Origin: Arctopsyche grandis
Lineage: Eukaryota; Arthropoda; Insecta; Trichoptera; Hydropsychidae
Length of the DNA: 64,000 bases
Direction: 5' to 3'
Assembly: GCF_051622035.1 (NCBI RefSeq)
Contig: NC_135355.1
Location: 22,808,486 to 22,872,485, forward strand
The notes beneath the pieces were generated by a model, which saw only the letters and a list, made by a program, of their open reading frames with translations, was not told where the DNA came from and did no database searches. Made by a program: the position numbers and the translations under genes. This document shows positions 7,438 through 60,409 of this stretch, piece after piece (positions within the stretch are counted from its first letter, which is position 1; every line of letters begins with the position of its first letter).

Positions 7438-8070
7438 ATGTAAAATATGTTGCTTATCTTATTAGTTTTCAATGAAAACAATTCAAATAATTTAACTAGA
7501 ATTTCTGTGTTGTAGTGGAATAACTGAATACTATCTTAGGGATTAACTGTTATCTGATGAAACGAGGTTGTGATATCAAGCGAAAAAAATTATAACTAGT
7601 TTTAGGCGAAAAAAATCGTCATACATTGACGATGAGGTCCGTTTATTTATCCAATTAACAGTAAGATATTAGTTTTTTATTGAGAGACAAATATAAAATG
7701 AACTGTAGAAGACGAATTTGCTTCAAAACAGAGGAATGCTTGTGCAACGATCGACGTAACAGTTTGTTTACGGACGTTAAGCCACAAAAAACTTCCGTAA
7801 CAAAATCAACCTACTGTTGTGGATAATGTTGGTGTTATGCAAGATGGTGCTTCTTAAAAGCTTTTCCCACAATTGTAAAATTAAAACAATCGCATGCAGT
7901 AGCGTGCATCGTGTCATGTCGGAATTAAATTCGAATCACATTGTCGTGATACACTAATTTCAATCAATCTGATTTACACACTAACATAAATGATGAATAA
8001 TCCATAGTTTGTTTCTATGTACATATGTAGTAACATGATACAAAGTGCAACTATTGATGCTTTAAGGTCG
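7438..8070. other. Gene-free AT-rich stretch
   Basis: No ORF, repeat or RNA gene that I can support. Confidence 0.5.
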
Positions 8071-8077
8071 TAATAAG

Positions 8078-8180
8078 TAGTCACCGGAGCCTGAGGGGGC
8101 CGTGTATTGTTCAAAGGTTGTAAATGCATTGTTAAAGGTTTGCCGAACAATGGATAGCACTGTGACTATCCTACCTCTAG
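8078..8180 (+). mobile_element. 103-bp element with 7-bp target duplication, copy 1
   Basis: A 103-bp unit begins tagtcaccggagcctgaggg and ends actatcctacctctag. It is bounded by a 7-bp direct repeat, taataag, at 8071-8077 and 8181-8187. A second copy at 60297-60399 differs at two positions and has its own duplication. Inside, TAGTCAC (8078-8084) pairs with GTGACTA (8162-8168) and CATTGTT pairs with AACAATG, so a transcript could fold. No ORF. The family is unknown to me. Confidence 0.8.
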
Positions 8181-8346
8181 TAATAAGATTATTCCGTCCA
8201 GCATACACAATATGAAGAATCACTTCTTTCTTGGGTTTAAATGTTTCCCTTTCATTATATGTAATTGCAAGTATCGATAACGTTCACATTCTGTTCATTT
8301 TTCTTGTACAATAGATGCAAAATATCCAAGATGGAAGATACGTATG

Positions 8347-8547
8347 CAGTGCCGATTTTAGTGGGGGCTGAGTCGGGCGCCAAATAAGTTAGGGCGCCAC
8401 ACGATGCGCCTAAGGCCCTCTAAAATTTAAAATTAGAGCGCCAAAAGCCATACAAAATTTTAGATTAGAGCGCTAAAGGCGAAATTTTTTTCTAAGGGCG
8501 TTTAGAAAAAAATCCCGAGGGCGCCATTGGGTGTAATGCCGGCACTG
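8347..8547. mobile_element. hAT-type MITE, 201 bp
   Basis: Starts CAGTGCCG and ends CCGGCACTG. An exact 8-bp direct repeat, tacgtatg, flanks it at 8339-8346 and 8548-8555. The interior contains reiterated ggcgcc/agagcgcc motifs. The termini and 8-bp duplication indicate hAT. Confidence 0.85.
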
Positions 8548-24310: not shown

Positions 24311-25634
<1,324 letters not shown>

Positions 25635-31738: not shown

Positions 31739-34583
31739 CTATTTAATCAATTATATAATTTAAATATAAAATTCAAACAATATAATTTGTAAAAAGAGAT
31801 ACACAATTGCCTCAGTTTTTGTATCTATAAGTGCTCTTCCCGGAACTGTATGTTTGGCAACATCGCATTCGGCTTGAAACCGTTGATACGCATCTTCAAA
31901 AAGTCCAGTATCCCTGATACTAAGCGATTTAAAGCGGCGCGATCCATGTTTAGACTGTTCCCAAATTATACCTGAACTATAACGACAAAATAAAACATTT
32001 GAATACACAAACAAACGTATTTTATTGAAAAATAGTGCATGTTCATCATACCTGGCTATACTTAAATACAAAATTTCCTGTCGCACAAGATTGTTTACCA
32101 AAGATAATCCCATTCCGTGCATGGAAATTGTCACTTCAGTGTTAATTATGCCGGATTCTCCAGCAGTATGTGCACCATGAGCTAATAAAACATCAGCTGT
32201 AAACAGTAAAATTCTCTGCATCCCGTCTAAAAATGATACCCAATACACCCGAGTATCATTGCCAACCCTATAATATATTTTAAAAATATACATATGTAAA
32301 TTACGTTTTAAAAATAATAGCTGAATCAATCTGAAAAAGCCCAAACATACATAAAATCGCCGAGACCATCTTTTCTTAAATCATTTTCTACCTCTTTCTT
32401 CTTAAATCCTTCACATATTATGACACGTGGACCTGCAGGATTTTCCCAAGTATACATCAAACTATGCATACCCAACACTTTTCTGTGAATATAAAGGAAC
32501 ACCATTAATACAAAAAATTAAGTTAGTAAATTACGAATACACAAACGATCTGTTTACTTTATATTAATGCTTTCTTTCTCCCACACACTGATAGGATAAG
32601 TCGTATGATTGATTATAAGAGCCGGAGCAAGACCGGGACGATACTGTCCAAGAGTAACATAAACACCTCCTTCAGTTATCAGTGTTTCTACATTTATTCC
32701 TCCATACTAAAACACACACACACACACAATGAATAAATATAATATATTACACATAAAGCCAGAAATATCATCAAAATAAAATATGTATGTATTACCTGAT
32801 TATATAATCTTAAAAGTGATGTATGTTGATCAGTATAGATGAAAGGGGCACTGACAGCTGGGTTATCAGCAACTTTCAACCTCATCAATTTATCACTTTT
32901 TTCAGATTTTGGCCAAAAGGCTTTACTAGAATTGGCTTCGATCTAAAAAGAAATGGTGTTTAAATGCATACACAATGCAATTTTATGTTTTTAATACTCG
33001 AAGCACATCATTTACCTTCACATATTGATCACCCGGTCGGTCAACTTCTTGGCATTCAATAATAAACGGCGCATTGTTGATAAGTAGAAAGTATGGTGTG
33101 AATGTTACCTGTTTTGTCAAGCTATTATATGTCAATGTATTGGAAACTCCAACCTATTAGAAACAATTTGTTATTTGAATATTTATTACAGATAATTTGA
33201 AATACAATAAAATTAACAATGTATGAAATTAGTACTTGATAAACTCGACCGCCAGTGTTGCAAACGACTACTCCGGAGCTACCAGGTACATCAAGTGAAA
33301 ACTTTTCAGACCAGTCACCATTTTCAATACGAATCGAAGCTTTCTTTTTGCCAAAGAAATTTTTAGCGCGGAATGAAAATAGTATAGGTTCCTTATAATC
33401 CGCTGGATGATATAAAACATTACTCAATTCCTCTGAACTCTAAAATATTGAAGAAAAAAATTTAAAGATAAATATGGAATAAAAAAGAATACAAAAATAT
33501 GTTAACATTATAATCAAGTCTTATAAATATGCTCCATCACCATCATATATTAAATGCTTGTTTTAAAAAGGTAAACACAAATACCCAATTTCCAATAGTT
33601 AATATATGACCGTTTAATACACCAAGCGCGTTATTTATATTTTATTTTTACCATAGTGTCATTATGGAATTGACCCAAGGCAACATCTATGGTATTAAAC
33701 TTGTACATATACAAATTTATAGATTATAAATTTGAAATTATATTCAAGCAATGGTGACAGATGAGGGTAGGTGGCCAATTTTTTAGGAACCGTTTCTACA
33801 TTGAAATCAGTTAAATTGGCAAACTTTGATAGGAAACGATCGATCTAGAGTCACATATCCGAGGTGTGGCCAGCAACACTAGATCAGAGCTCAAACTCGT
33901 GACCCCTCAATCGTTAGCATTATACGCTAACTACTGAGCTATTTTACAAATATGTATATTTCTATAATGTAATTTATAATAACTAATACATATTACATTT
34001 TACTCAAATGTGAAGGCTCATCTCGATATTAGAATGTTATTATACAATTACCAACCATTTTAATTATAAAGAAAGAGATTGACCCCCACATTAAAAATAA
34101 TCTAAGATATATTACATACATTTATTTATAAAACTAAAATATATGATAAATATTTCAAATAAAATATAGAAAATATAAAAAGGAAATATACTCATGCAAT
34201 ATTTTATAAAATGTTCAAATTACTTTAAATAATTGCAATGTAACTTTGAATAAACGTGTACCTCAAATAAAATATGTAAATGAAAATAGTGGGGTCTATG
34301 TTAAAAACAAATAAGCCATAGCTGAAAATGTATGTAAATATAAAAGAAAGCAAGACCTAAAATGCAAGATATACTCAAAATAATCAAGCATTACTATTGA
34401 TCACAACGGATGTACCTTACAAGGACTGTCACTTGAATCACTTCGTTCATTTTTCCGAGATTTCTGTAATAAAGTATAATTCAGTTCTATGCATAAAAAA
34501 CTTTTACATTAGCGGAAAAACCAAACTAACTTTACAGTTGAAAATCGCTTACATACATATTATTACACAAAACCCAAAGACAA

Positions 34584-34660
<77 letters not shown>

Positions 34661-37600
34661 GTATATACATAAAATTGACTTTTCACAATTTAAAGATAAT
34701 ATATCATACCCTATAAGCCAATGGGAGACCAGTCTTGTTGAGCATCCAAAATGGACAATAGAGTGAAAAATGTTGGCTTCCATTAACTTCGGTGCAATGC
34801 ATTCCCAGATCTAAAGTCATCTTCATAGTACTGTCATAAGAATCAAATGACCAAACTGCAAATTCTGGGGCATTTTCTGGAATTTCGCTTGTACATACCC
34901 AGCATTTTTCCAAATATGAAGGTAACTAAATCATATCATTTAATCATAATGTTAAAACTATAAAAGCGATTTGATAAACTGAAATTTAAATATAATATAA
35001 TAATTACCATGACAACAATTGAAGTATCACCAGGTTGAACTTGCGGTAAATGTAAAGTAGCTCCAGGTTTAACTATTTGCTCCAGCGGTTTTTGAATCCC
35101 TTGTGGTGAAACGATTATGTCTACAGGAAGCGTATTTTGTAAAACTACAGCTGGTCTCAAATATATGTTATAACAAGCAGACACCATTGTGTGACGAGAG
35201 GTGTCAGCAAGGAACACTTGTTCCATCACACCCACCGCCTAAAACATATTTCGTAATTAGTTATTTTGTTCAAACATGGTATTCAATCTTTTTTTTTTAA
35301 CTTAGCACACATACCTTCATGAAGAATTTATCTTTTTGATTTCTATTCCGCGAATCACATTTCAATAATTTAGTTTGCTTCAAAGATCTTTGCAAATCTC
35401 TCCAAACAAACGGAACAACCGATACTGTATATCCTTCAACGGAGAAGAAGATTTCGCTTGTAGGTGTGTAAACAGCACGTAATGGAAGATTCATAACTCC
35501 TTTTGGTTCAACATCACCGAGAGACTCTGCATCATTTCCAGTTACTGTCATAAAATACACTCTCACGGGCACAGATAAGTGATTAATAACCTATTATTGG
35601 ATAAAGATAAAATAAACTTAATTTTTTGGTACATACAGGTGCAATAGATTATAAAATAATATATTTTTAAAAACCTGAATAACACTGCTAAGATTAATTT
35701 GAATAGTTCCTTCAACCACAACCACCTCTGATATTATACCGTGGCTATCATTAACAGCAGAAGCTTTGTTGGCAACGGGATAATTTTTAAGAGGAAAATA
35801 TCGTTTATCAGCTTTCACCACAGGAAGACATAATTCATAATCTAGTTCAACAATCTGTAAACACATTATGTAATAATAAGAAGTAAAATTTCATAAAGAA
35901 GTACAATAAATAGTATCCAAATTTTATGAACGTCAAATATGTATGTCTTATTCTACCTTCACATGTAATTTCCATTCTGGTAATCGTTCATTTAGACCTG
36001 TGGCTTTCACCAAACCTGACTTCAATTGTAAAGAAACTGACGCTCCATGTTCCAACATAACGTCTCTATAACATTCACAAAAACGAATATGAATAAAATA
36101 TATAAAATAAATAAAAACTCGAAACTTAAAATATACTTACTTATACATTGAGGGTGCATTGATTTTTTGTTGACTGCTATCATTTTCCCCAGATTCGTAT
36201 ATAATAAATGGGTCTTTTTCCAAGAGCAATATAACTGTTAACCCAGTATCATTTTTGACGAGATATGGAGACGTTCCTTCAGTTGGTTTAGTTTGTAAAT
36301 CACCTTGAACAGCGCTTGAAAATGATTTACCGAGTTGTGAAAGAACCTAAAACAATTTTAAAAGAAATCAAAATTAGTACATATGTATGTAGATTATAAG
36401 GTAGGATTTCTTTGATAATATATTCATAATAAAGTCATACTTGTAGGGCCGTATTTGTTACTGTTAATTCCAATGTTTCTGAACTACTAATTTGTACAGA
36501 AAGATTTGGTTGTGGAAGATTCATTTCCCCATCAACATTATCTCCAATTGCAGTAGGTGATGTTTCTGCAGTTGGTGAGAGTGAAGCAACACTAGCAAAA
36601 CCTTCTTGATTATTAGCATTCTTGTTCATATGTACCTAAAAAACAAAATTTATAAAAAAAATAATAATTCTGAAACGAATACCATTATTAAACGAGTAAA
36701 AAGGATATACTAACTTGCATTCTTAGTTCCCACGGAATATGGACATATTGATTGTCTTTAACAACTTCTACGGGTTCAATAAGTGGTTCCCATAAGGCAA
36801 GATGATTGTTATAATACGACACCTGCATTGCCCATGTAGACTCCATATCCAACTGAATAACAATATTAGCTTAAGAATCATATGTATGTATATATCAATT
36901 AAAAAAATTATATATAAGGACAGATAACTGACTTGTCCGCTCCAATCTTTGATTAGAGCTTCCAACGAAGCCTGCATACTCAACATAGGAATAGTATCAT
37001 TGCCTATACCAGTTTCTATACATAGCACAATAACAGGAGCAGAAAGAAGACATATCTCTCCAGACACTGCTGGAACCTCTGCACTCTTCTCGGGCGACAT
37101 GTCTCCACACACATCCAAAGCATCTTCAGCCAATTCTGTGAAGTAAATTTTGAATAAATTTTTGATAATACAAAATTATGTAATATTAAAATTTAAATAT
37201 GCCATTACCTGTTCTGAGAAACCAATATGTATGTTGTTGGAATTGTTTAATATCCCATAAATCTTTGAATATATCAAATGGTTGCTGTTGAATTACAGCA
37301 TCGTCATCAGACTTCGTCATTGTGGCCATTACCCGATTTAATAAATCAATGGTTGCTAAACATTAGGAAAAAACAATTGAGTGATTGGATAATCGGGTAG
37401 CCATTAGTTTGGTATAATCTTGGAATTCTTTGAATTAAATTTAGCATAATTGAGATGTCAAAATATTTTAGATTTGTTGCATTCCGATTAATCATAATGT
37501 ACCTTATTAAAATAAAAAAAATTAAGAAAGGAAATTATAAATAAACAATTATAAAAACCATACCGGGTGAAACATTAAGTCTTATATCTGTAACGGCCAA

Positions 37601-47343: not shown

Positions 47344-47905
47344 TGATGTCCTTATTTTCTATCTCATTCTCACGTGGCAGTTTTCCCTAACCATTGCATT
47401 TTCTTCGACAAACCCCAATGATATTTAATTAAGGTTGTCTTTTTACAATCTGAACGCATTAATGATATTATTATGTATGTAAGTTTGGATTCGTAGAATC
47501 TGTGACGATAATTTAATTAATAAAATGTTTACTATTAGATTAGCCATGTTTAAGCGGTTTATATTACAAATACCGAGCGAAGCCGAGTAAAACTACTAGT
47601 TAACTACATATGTATATATTGACTTGATGTCCTTATTTTCTATCTCATTCTCACGTGGCAGTTTTCCCTAACCATTGCATTTTCTTCGACAAACCCCAAT
47701 GATATTTAATTAAGGTTGTCTTTTTACAATCTGAACGCATTAATGATATTATTATGTATGTAAGTTTGGATTCGTAGAATCTGTGACGATAATTTAATTA
47801 ATAAAATGTTTACTATTAGATTAGCCATGTTTAAGCGGTTTATATTACAAATACCGAGCGAAGCCGAGTAAAACTACTAGTTAACTACATATGTATATAT
47901 TGACT
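47344..47905. repeat. Exact 281-bp tandem duplication
   Basis: 47344-47624 and 47625-47905 read identically (start tgatgtccttattttctatc, end atatgtatatattgact), with a 4-bp continuation tgat to 47909. Each unit contains one right end of the CTAGT/GGCTTCG family (accgagcgaagccgagtaaa, actactagtt). A very recent duplication or an assembly artefact. Confidence 0.95.
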
Positions 47906-47939
47906 TGATCTTCTAATTTATACATATAATATTTGTAAT

Positions 47940-57067: not shown

Positions 57068-59219
57068 ATGGCCAAAGCACCAGCGATCGGTATTGATTTG
57101 GGCACCACATATTCCTGCGTTGGAGTCTTCCAACATGGAAAGGTCGAAATTATCGCCAACGACCAAGGCAACAGAACCACGCCATCATATGTGGCGTTTA
57201 CAGATACTGAGCGTCTCATCGGGGATGCCGCCAAGAACCAAGTTGCCATGAACCCTAACAACACCATCTTTGGTAAGTAACATGCATAACAATTGTGTTC
57301 ATTTAATCTTACATTTATCATGATGACAACAAACATAGACTAGAGTTTCTGATTTTCCATGATCACAATAGCAAATCTGAGGTTGATTTCATGATAATTA
57401 TAATTCTTTTTGTTGAGGCTGCGGTATCTGATTTTTATTTTTTATTTTTACAGATGCTAAGCGACTCATTGGTCGCAAGTTCGAAGACGCAACTGTCCAG
57501 GCTGATATGAAGCACTGGCCTTTTGAAGTCATCGATGATGCAACAAAACCTAAAATTAAGGTTAACTATAAGGGCGAAGATAAGACATTCTTCCCAGAAG
57601 AAGTTAGCTCAATGGTCCTCACCAAAATGAAGGAGACTGCCGAAGCGTACCTCGGAAAAACTGTACAAAATGCGGTCATCACCGTCCCAGCTTATTTCAA
57701 CGATTCTCAGAGACAAGCTACCAAAGATGCGGGAACTATTTCCGGACTGAATGTTCTGCGAATCATCAACGAACCGACTGCCGCCGCCATCGCGTATGGC
57801 TTAGATAAGAAAGCTTCAGGAGAACGTAATGTACTCATCTTTGATCTTGGAGGTGGTACCTTTGATGTATCTATTCTGACGATTGAGGATGGTATTTTTG
57901 AAGTCAAGTCGACGGCTGGTGATACTCATCTTGGAGGTGAAGACTTCGACAATCGAATGGTAAATCATTTTGTTCAAGAATTCAAGAGGAAATACAAGAA
58001 GGATCTAACTTCAAACAAGAGGGCTCTTAGGCGTCTTAGAACTTCTTGCGAAAGGGCGAAGAGAACACTTTCGTCTAGCACTCAAGCTAGTATCGAGATT
58101 GATTCTCTCTTTGAGGGTATTGATTTCTACACTTCAATCACCCGTGCGCGTTTTGAAGAGTTAAATGCTGACCTCTTCAGATCGACCATGGAACCCGTTG
58201 AGAAGTCTTTGCGCGATGCAAAGATGGACAAGGCTCAAGTACATGACATTGTTTTGGTTGGTGGTTCCACTAGAATCCCTAAAGTACAAAAACTGTTGCA
58301 AGACTTCTTCAATGGTAAGGAGTTGAACAAATCCATTAATCCCGATGAAGCTGTTGCATATGGCGCTGCTGTGCAGGCTGCTATTCTTCACGGTGATAAG
58401 TCTGAAGAGGTTCAGGATCTTTTGCTCTTGGATGTCACCCCCCTATCGTTGGGTATTGAGACTGCTGGAGGTATGATGACAACTCTCATTAAAAGAAATA
58501 CCACTATTCCCACCAAACAAACTCAAACATTCACCACCTACTCCGACAACCAACCCGGTGTATTGATTCAGGTATTTGAAGGCGAGCGTGCCATGACTAA
58601 GGACAACAATTTACTCGGCAAGTTTGAACTCACTGGCATTCCTCCAGCACCCCGTGGTGTACCTCAAATTGAGGTTACTTTTGATATTGACGCCAACGGT
58701 ATCTTGAATGTATCTGCTCTTGAAAAGACCACAAACAAGGAAAATAAGATCACCATTACAAATGACAAAGGCAGATTGTCAAAGGAAGACATCGAACGGA
58801 TGGTTAATGAAGCTGAGAAATACCGAAGTGAGGATGAAAAACAAAAGAGCACGATTACTTCCAAGAATAATCTAGAATCTTACTGCTTCAACATGAAATC
58901 TACAATGGAAGATGATAAGGTCAAAGGCAAGATCACAGAAGCCGAAAAGAATACCATCATGGAGAAATGCAATGAAACCATTAAATGGTTGGACTCGAAC
59001 CAACTCGCTGAGAAGGAAGAATATGATCACAAGAAGAAGGAATTAGAGTCTGTATGTGAACCAATCATCACTAAGATGTTCCAGGGTGCTGGTGGTATGC
59101 CTGGAGGTCCTGGGGGACCAGGAGGACGTATGCCACCTGGCTTTGAAGATATGCATGGTGCTGGAGCTCCTCCCAGTGGTGGTGGTAGCGCTGGACCCAC
59201 AATCGAAGAAGTCGATTAA
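57068..59219 (+). CDS. Hsc70-4: Cytosolic heat-shock cognate 70 (Hsc70-4 type), complete
   Basis: ATP-dependent chaperone for folding, clathrin uncoating and protein targeting. Exons 57068-57272 and 57454-59219 give 656 residues (fly Hsc70-4 has 651). Near the N-terminus is [14 protein letters not shown]; then [10 protein letters not shown] (about 197-206), [14 protein letters not shown] (about 334-347), the substrate-binding domain, a Gly/Met/Pro-rich tail and the cytosolic EEVD terminus, which binds TPR co-chaperones. No signal peptide or KDEL, so it is not the ER form. The intron after TIFG and the noncoding first intron argue for a cognate rather than an intronless inducible HSP70. Codons are more GC-rich than in neighbouring genes, as expected for high expression. 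The promoter has a perfect heat-shock element, so expression may also be inducible. Confidence 0.97.
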
Positions 59220-59399: not shown

Positions 59400-60289
59400 A
59401 CTTTCCTCTTTTTCATATAAGGTTAAAATGTATTTCTCATTGACGTGGTTGTCATGGATGTTGTAAGTAGGATTGGACGATCCGTCCAAGGAGTCTTCCT
59501 GGGTTCTTCCACAGGGCTGTGGACTTTAATCAATATTTACCGACTCCGTCAAATCAATATTTTGTTAAGATGCACTAATCTTGCCAATGTATTGAATTAT
59601 AGCGATTTTCAATACAAAGAATTAAAAAAATCACTGAAAATTGGCATCAACCTAAATTATTGAATTAGTAATGTAAAAAAGATATAAATAATAAAAAGTA
59701 AGTATGTATGCATTCATAGTATGTTTCCATGAATATCATACATATGTAAAGATCGATTTAATAAAGTATCTTAATTTAATGTAACAGGAAACATCGGTTT
59801 TGGCCAGAACATTGCGATTTTATTTATAACTTAATTTATATTCATGATTTTATAAAGAAATTGAATTTCAATTTTCAAATCGATCACTTAAATAAAAAAA
59901 TTAGAGACTTGTTAACGCGTTCTGTAGTACTATTAAAAAAAATAAAAGGTTTGTTTACGATTACGTTTGAAATGCTCAGACTCCACACATCCCTGGTAAA
60001 AACTAAAATTTGAAGGTAAAACGTGTCTGCTCAGTACAATAAAATATGTACATATACATATATACACATCTCAGTGCAAGCTGAATAAGTAGTGTATGAT
60101 TTTTATAAGCTTCTTATCAGCTTGCTTTCGATTATTTAGGTTTTAAATATTTAAAGTAATTATAAATTCATAGATTTGATTCGAAAGTTGAGGTTTGTAT
60201 ATACATAGTTATAAATTCATAGATTTTGAATAGAAAAAATTGTGTTAAAATGGTTTATAACACTGGTACATACAGATAAATGTTATAAG
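59400..60289. other. Gene-free spacer after Hsc70
   Basis: AT-rich. The 72-codon ORF at 59445 has no recognisable similarity. No element supported. Confidence 0.45.
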
Positions 60290-60296
60290 TTATAAC

Positions 60297-60399
60297 TAGT
60301 CACCGGAGCCTGAGGGGGCCGTGTATTGTTCAAAGGTTGTAAATGCATTGTTAAAGGTTTGCTGAACAATGAATAGCACTGTGACTATCCTACCTCTAG
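60297..60399 (+). mobile_element. 103-bp element with 7-bp target duplication, copy 2
   Basis: Differs from 8078-8180 at only two positions (gctg for gccg, tgaat for tggat) and has the same boundaries. It is flanked by ttataac at 60290-60296 and 60400-60406, a duplication different from that of copy 1, which proves independent insertion. Confidence 0.85.
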
Positions 60400-60409
60400 T
60401 TATAACATT

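What the first reader, a model, noticed from the sequence alone, without database searches (positions are those of the whole stretch)
8078..8180. Twin 103-bp structured elements with 7-bp target duplications
Two copies 52 kb apart (the other at 60297-60399) are identical except for two transitions. Each is flanked by a different exact 7-bp direct repeat (taataag; ttataac). The unit has no ORF, no tRNA-type A/B boxes that I can accept, and no long terminal inverted repeats. It does have paired internal segments (TAGTCAC/GTGACTA, CATTGTT/AACAATG) and a degenerate internal duplication (attgttcaaaggttg, attgttaaaggtttg). A 7-bp duplication is uncommon among DNA transposons (Dada-type elements make 6-7 bp). 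Either a tiny, recently active DNA element or retro-inserted copies of a small structured RNA would fit.
Basis: partly seen in the sequence, partly recalled or inferred. Interest (0 to 1): 0.7.

Follow-up and report, generated by a model that had tools for sequence, protein, structure and literature searches.

The report
Tiny hAT-type DNA transposon (MITE)
The two 103-base twins are copies of an ordinary, very short and recently active DNA transposon without genes of its own, which duplicates 8 bases (not 7) where it lands and whose family is present in more than a thousand copies in this insect-like genome.

Summary
The twins are real, but the edges are off by one base. In both copies a G precedes the supposed 7-bp repeat, and the unit's own last base is G. 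The element is 102 bp (8078-8179; 60297-60398) with 8-bp duplications GTAATAAG and GTTATAAC. Copies elsewhere in the genome have C, T or A as that base, duplicated on both sides, so it belongs to the target. Of 33 full copies in loci from an element-only search, 26 have an exact 8-bp duplication, 5 one mismatch, 2 none. The target consensus is the palindrome GTnATnAC, a case of the hAT pattern nTnnnnAn. Ends read TAG; the 3' end TAGAGGT resembles Tol2's CAGAGGT. Mean divergence is 0.85%: recent spread. The element is a shortened form of 133-bp and 144-bp relatives with better inverted repeats: a non-autonomous hAT-type MITE. A 7-bp (Dada-like) duplication, retro-inserted RNA and SINE are rejected. 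No transposase gene with these ends was found, though few were examined, so hAT membership rests on target and ends. Some copies (5 of 30 loci) sit in each other's duplicated target, giving arrays with 8-bp spacers, as already described for P elements.

The parts
8078..8179 (+). 102-bp hAT-type MITE, copy 1 (5' TAGTCACCGG; 3' end read inward TAGAGGTAGG)
8070..8077 (.). 8-bp target site duplication, left (GTAATAAG)
8180..8187 (.). 8-bp target site duplication, right (GTAATAAG)
60297..60398 (+). 102-bp hAT-type MITE, copy 2 (two transitions from copy 1, unit positions 67 and 76)
60289..60296 (.). 8-bp target site duplication, left (GTTATAAC, a perfect palindrome)
60399..60406 (.). 8-bp target site duplication, right (GTTATAAC)
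8078..8084 (+). 5' terminal TAGTCAC, repeated inverted at 8162-8168 (GTGACTA), 11 bp inside the 3' end
   Evidence: sequence
8162..8168 (+). GTGACTA, inverted partner of the 5' end, in the part of the 3' end that differs from the 144-bp relative

Best explanation
A non-autonomous cut-and-paste DNA transposon (MITE) of the hAT type, 102 bp long. Shown: fixed ends, 8-bp target duplication with consensus GTnATnAC, high copy number, low divergence, likeness to longer relatives (133 bp and 144 bp) that share ends and target. Inferred: a hAT transposase made by an autonomous element elsewhere in the genome binds the terminal and subterminal motifs, excises the element and inserts it across an 8-bp staggered cut at nTnATnAn; repair makes the duplication. 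Because each insertion doubles a good target, further copies land in the duplicated site and build short arrays.
For: Element-only genome search: 237 candidates, 40 scored; 40 of 46 matches cover the whole unit (one from base 3) at 98-100%, the other 6 are partial neighbours. In the 30 loci cut from it (one is the window's own copy 2), 33 full copies: 26 with exact 8-bp duplication, 5 with one mismatch, 2 without; none of the 26 extends to 9 bp; target T 25/26, A 26/26, T 26/26, A 24/26 at positions 2, 4, 5, 7. Pool of 78 copies: 66 exact 8 bp, mean divergence 0.85% (pool partly biased by a query that held the target). Exact 20-bp 3' end, shared by the 102- and 133-bp forms: 2591 times in the genome, reversed-pattern control 0. 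144-bp relative: TIR pattern 1089 times with up to 3 mismatches, control 0; of 20 loci read, 16 have an exact 8-bp duplication, 15 of them nTnATnAn. Alignment of representatives: 102-bp form = 133-bp form minus 31 internal bases; 133-bp form = 144-bp form with a shortened, altered 3' repeat. Literature passages: Hermes prefers nTnnnnAn with 8-bp TSD (PMC10368747); hobo 8 bp, GTNCGNAC (PMC3276498); Tol2 ends CAGAGGTGTAAA (PMC4818426). hAT dimerisation domains (PF05699) are abundant in this genome: 2335 candidates, 150 scored, some in open frames of 628 aa and more.
Against: These are a small part of 2335 hAT candidates. The Hermes DNA-binding family (PF10683) gave no match, but it rang in no control genome either. 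12 of 78 pooled copies and 4 of 20 copies of the 144-bp relative lack an exact 8-bp duplication. The 102-bp form's own inverted repeat is poor: beyond TAG only scattered matches. 8-bp duplications also occur in the P superfamily.
Confidence: 0.85

Rival explanations
1. A MITE moved by a P-superfamily transposase (8-bp or 7-bp duplications).
For: P-element duplicates 8 bp with target GTCCGGAC and 1360 duplicates 7 bp with GTTNAAC (PMC3276498 passages); both are GT...AC palindromes like ours.
Against: Ends begin TAG/TAGAGG, whereas P elements begin with CA (recalled). No match to Tnp_P_element_C, though that family rang in no control genome, so the absence is weak. The fixed AT centre with free positions 3 and 6 matches hobo's GTNCGNAC layout more closely.
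Confidence: 0.08
2. An unusual 7-bp-duplicating element of the Dada or another rare superfamily.
For: Read from the two window copies alone, 7 bp is also exact.
Against: 26 of 33 element-only copies have exact 8-bp duplications in which the first base varies (G, C, A, T) and is the same on both sides. Array spacers are 8 bp in 47 of 58 head-to-tail junctions found by pattern.
Confidence: 0.01
3. Retro-inserted copies of a small structured RNA, or a SINE.
For: Short, non-coding, dispersed, with some internal pairing.
Against: Fold no better than shuffles; no Rfam match at gathering score in the window and none overlapping the unit at E<=10 in 7900-8400; no tRNA; no 3' tail in the sequence; constant 8-bp palindromic target; relatives have terminal inverted repeats.
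Confidence: 0.02
4. A MITE of a cut-and-paste superfamily with 8-bp duplications other than hAT and P (for example Merlin, or an undescribed one).
For: No transposase with these ends has been identified; the AT-centred target differs from that reported for hobo.
Against: The nTnnnnAn target and YAGAGGT end fit hAT without special pleading. Merlin was not searched for.
Confidence: 0.04

Closest known systems
hAT superfamily, Ac-type (hobo, Hermes, Tol2) and the MITEs they mobilise
   Same: 8-bp duplication; palindromic nTnnnnAn target (hobo GTNCGNAC, here GTnATnAC); ends YAG, 3' end TAGAGGT as in Tol2 CAGAGGT.
   Different: Centre of the target fixed as AT; only 102 bp; 5' end (TAGTCACC) departs from the family TIR; mobilising transposase not found.
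Mar, a hAT (Buster) MITE of Drosophila (PMC3517528, passages)
   Same: hAT MITE in an insect, 8-bp TSD, 11-bp TIRs, recent mobilisation.
   Different: Mar is 610 bp, TIR CAG(G/A)GGTAGGC, target nnnTAnnn (Buster); ours is nTnATnAn, i.e. not Buster-like.
Tandem double insertions of P-element (work cited in review PMC9659126, passages) and tandem hAT MITEs in cod (PMC12368964, passages)
   Same: Copies abut with a spacer the length and motif of the target duplication (P-element); tandem hAT MITEs (cod).
   Different: Here the units are 102-144 bp, in both relative orientations, found on many contigs rather than at inversion breakpoints.
Dada elements
   Same: Cut-and-paste DNA transposon.

Membership tests
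hAT-type MITE | 8-bp target site duplication | tested here: met
   26 of 33 exact, 5 with one mismatch, 2 without; none of the 26 extends to 9 bp
hAT-type MITE | target nTnnnnAn, palindromic (Ac branch) | tested here: met
   T 25/26 at position 2, A 24/26 at position 7; 8-bp array spacers T 46/47, A 47/47; consensus from PMC10368747 and PMC3276498
hAT-type MITE | short terminal inverted repeats beginning YAG | tested here: met
   Both ends TAG in the 102-bp form, otherwise degenerate; 144-bp relative has about 23-bp TIRs, TAGAGGTCGGAATCTGAAGGGGC against TAGAGCCCGGAATCTGAAGGGGC
hAT-type MITE | short, non-coding, many near-identical copies | tested here: met
   102 bp; 2591 exact 3' ends of the 102/133-bp forms; mean divergence 0.85% over 78 copies
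hAT-type MITE | autonomous hAT element with the same ends | tested here: inconclusive
   Not found in 50 hAT flanks, nor near 49 hAT hits on C1-C2 (5 of them beyond the capped TIR list); 2335 candidates exist
hAT Buster branch | target nnnTAnnn | tested here: not met
   Centre is AT in 26 of 26
P superfamily MITE | ends beginning CA (recalled) | tested here: not met
   Ends begin TAG
P superfamily MITE | P transposase in the genome | tested here: inconclusive
   PF12596: 0 matches, but no control rang
Dada | 6-7-bp duplication | tested here: not met
   8 bp
SINE / retro-inserted small RNA | RNA-derived body, 3' tail, variable duplication length | tested here: not met
   No Rfam or tRNA match; no tail; 8-bp duplication

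The most novel reading that the evidence does not exclude
The family actively prefers its own duplicated target: transposase held on a resident copy's ends guides new copies into the adjacent 8-bp duplication, so that the MITE seeds self-growing arrays (a route from a dispersed transposon to satellite DNA) beyond what the sequence preference alone gives.
Probability: 0.25. Interest if true: 0.45.

Novelty: new member of a known kind. Interest (0 to 1): 0.25.

Why it matters
It removes an apparently odd 7-bp transposon and a possible new RNA element from the list, and replaces them with a young hAT-type MITE family. The family may be of use as a clean test of double insertion: short, near-identical units of three main lengths, an exactly defined palindromic target, and arrays in which spacer and outer duplications can be compared. 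It also shows a general trap: when an element seems to end in the same base that precedes the target in the sites at hand, a duplication is read one base short.

Tried and rejected
Rejected: 7-bp duplication and Dada; retro-inserted RNA or SINE; Buster-branch hAT (target centre AT, not TA). Led nowhere: exact 20-22-base patterns in viral contigs (two patterns) and prokaryote genomes (one pattern), 0 hits each, as expected for a eukaryotic repeat. Autonomous partner: no end motif in 30 hAT loci and none but a 13-base match in 20 hAT 3' flanks. The 3'-only scan of the 30 loci inside wrongly took all as plus strand (16 are minus-strand hits), so it is void for those; re-oriented them to compare copies. 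One hAT 3' boundary that looked suggestive (L140, TAGAG with TTAATAAC) did not pan out: no matching 5' end in the 4 kb upstream. P-element and Hermes-DBD family searches were empty without a working control. A thought that the 11 junctions without an 8-bp spacer are excision footprints was dropped: at L011 the 15-bp spacer can be read as two overlapping duplications. Literature searches on tandem or nested MITE insertions; on MITEs of one candidate host. No repeat library (Dfam, Repbase) was at hand, so the family may already be catalogued. Left unused: 5 of 10 region calls and 4 of 12 genome searches.

Full report
What is in the window. Two copies of one unit lie 52 kb apart on the same strand and differ by two transitions. 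The flanking repeats are exact at 8 bp too (GTAATAAG and GTTATAAC) and fail at 9. The 8-bp reading takes the unit's last G as target, leaves a 102-bp element and makes both ends read TAG from outside in (TAGTCACCGG, TAGAGGTAGG). A scan of the window for 8-bp nTnnnnAn repeats around [CT]AG...CT[AG], 40-800 bp apart, finds just these two places; 30 dinucleotide shuffles average 0.27.

The genome decides between 7 and 8. The window lies in a 475.7-Mb assembly. A first search with the element plus 7 bases each side gave 1008 candidates, 40 scored, 46 matches; since that query held the target, its copies are biased to TAATAAG. Even so, copies with CTAATAAG (L010, L018) and TTAATAAG (L020) on both sides show that the eighth base is duplicated. 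An element-only search gave 237 candidates, 40 scored; 40 of its 46 matches cover the whole unit (one from base 3) at 98-100%, and 6 are partial neighbours. In the 30 loci cut, one of them the window's own copy 2, 33 full copies were read: 26 with an exact 8-bp duplication, 5 with one mismatch, 2 (L054, L073) without; none of the 26 extends to 9 bp. Position counts of the 26: 1 G16 C6 A3 T1; 2 T25 A1; 3 mixed; 4 A26; 5 T26; 6 A13 and mixed; 7 A24 G1 T1; 8 C14 G9 T2 A1. The target is the palindrome GTnATnAC.

Age and number. In the loci fetched up to, 78 distinct full copies have mean divergence 0.85% from their majority sequence, 31 of 78 are identical to it, and 66 of 78 have an exact 8-bp duplication (pool partly biased as said, and both searches rank by likeness to the query, so older copies are under-sampled). 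The exact 20-base 3' end occurs 2591 times genome-wide, with 0 for the reversed control; this counts 102-bp and 133-bp forms together. The number of 102-bp copies alone was not counted.

Relatives. Several loci carry a 133-bp form next to the 102-bp form. The pattern TAGAGGTCGGAATCTGAAGGGGC with up to 3 mismatches occurs 1089 times, control 0. Of 20 such loci read, 14 are 144-bp elements with an exact 8-bp duplication, one is 143 bp, one 173 bp (L122, different inside), and 4 have no exact duplication; 15 of the 16 duplications fit nTnATnAn, the exception being GTCAGTAC. Alignment of representatives shows the 102-bp form as the 133-bp form less 31 internal bases, and the 133-bp form as the 144-bp form with an altered, shortened 3' repeat. 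The direction of descent (144 to 133 to 102) is inferred. The RNA fold is no better than shuffles and nothing in Rfam matches.

What moves it. The 8-bp duplication with nTnnnnAn is the documented habit of Hermes (PMC10368747, passages; PMC2803484, passages) and hobo, for which the population study gives GTNCGNAC (PMC3276498, passages). Tol2 ends CAGAGGTG (PMC4818426, passages) resemble our TAGAGGT. The Buster branch has nnnTAnnn (PMC3517528, passages), which fails here: the centre is AT in 26 of 26. P elements also make 8-bp GT...AC duplications but begin with CA (recalled). hAT dimerisation domains are plentiful: 2335 candidates, 150 scored, with open frames up to 873 aa. So hAT-type is the best reading at about 0.85, and direct proof is missing.

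Arrays. 20 of 79 copies abut another family end across exactly 8 bp; at spacings 4, 5, 6, 7, 9, 10, 11, 12 the counts are 0, 1, 0, 0, 0, 0, 1, 0 (end match at least 8 of 10 bases to one of five reference ends; pool partly biased, and both members of a pair can count). In the element-only sample it is 5 of 30 loci (L051, L052, L056, L062, L070), L062 and L070 with diverged neighbours. A whole-genome pattern for head-to-tail junctions with a 0-30-base gap found 58 places, control 0; 47 of 58 gaps are exactly 8, with A, T at positions 4, 5 in 47 of 47. At L009, L051 and L056 outer and inner duplications agree, which fits insertion into an existing duplication; at L011 they do not, and at L012 and L052 one side has a mismatch. 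Four pairs of junctions 110 or 141 bp apart are trimers and could also have grown by recombination. Head-to-head and tail-to-tail junctions were seen in loci but not counted genome-wide. A rough expectation for random use of target sites, with 2591 copies, is 0.6 head-to-tail pairs for nTnATnAn sites or 6.8 for [GC]TnATnA[GC] sites, against 47 seen (site counts from the window). The junction pattern is looser than the one that gave 2591, so the 74-fold and 7-fold excesses are upper figures. Double insertion is known for P elements (cited in PMC9659126, passages) and tandem hAT MITEs are reported in cod (PMC12368964, passages), so this is a good example rather than a new kind of thing.

Host. 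The window holds a long open frame at 57432-59219 that I recognise as an Hsc70-type chaperone (recalled, not searched). The 13 large contigs (29.5-42.7 Mb) would fit a psyllid such as Diaphorina citri; this is a guess from memory and nothing rests on it.

Verdict. Observation partly confirmed (8 bp, 102 bp); a young hAT-type MITE, new member of a known kind, low to moderate interest.

Noticed in passing
47344-47909: A 281-bp unit present as 2.0 tandem copies at 100% identity (Tandem Repeats Finder): a very recent tandem duplication or an assembly artefact.
   Followed up: no
24796-24929 and 34583-34667: Long (TA)n runs of 134 and 85 bp.
   Followed up: no
57432-59219: 595-aa open frame that looks like the main exon of an Hsc70-type chaperone ending in EEVD (recognised from memory).
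   Followed up: no
L122 (G000:C2:17385896-17386296): A 173-bp element with the family's left end but a different interior and right end, with exact duplication ATCATTAC: another deletion or chimeric derivative.
   Followed up: partly
L075-L103: A hAT family with a 628-aa open frame in many closely similar copies, over a dozen of them on contig C2 between about 30.8 and 34.4 Mb: a local cluster of intact-looking hAT transposons without the MITE's end motifs nearby.
   Followed up: partly
G000:C1:36415523-36415563, C1:40322230-40322281, C13:23749229-23749275 and others: 11 of 58 head-to-tail junctions have spacers other than 8 bp, several made of repeated or palindromic target motifs; overlapping targets or excision footprints, not resolved.
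   Followed up: partly
8373-8530: Stretch with repeated 'gggcgcca'/'agcgcc' motifs about 200 bp after copy 1, perhaps the edge of another repeat.
   Followed up: no
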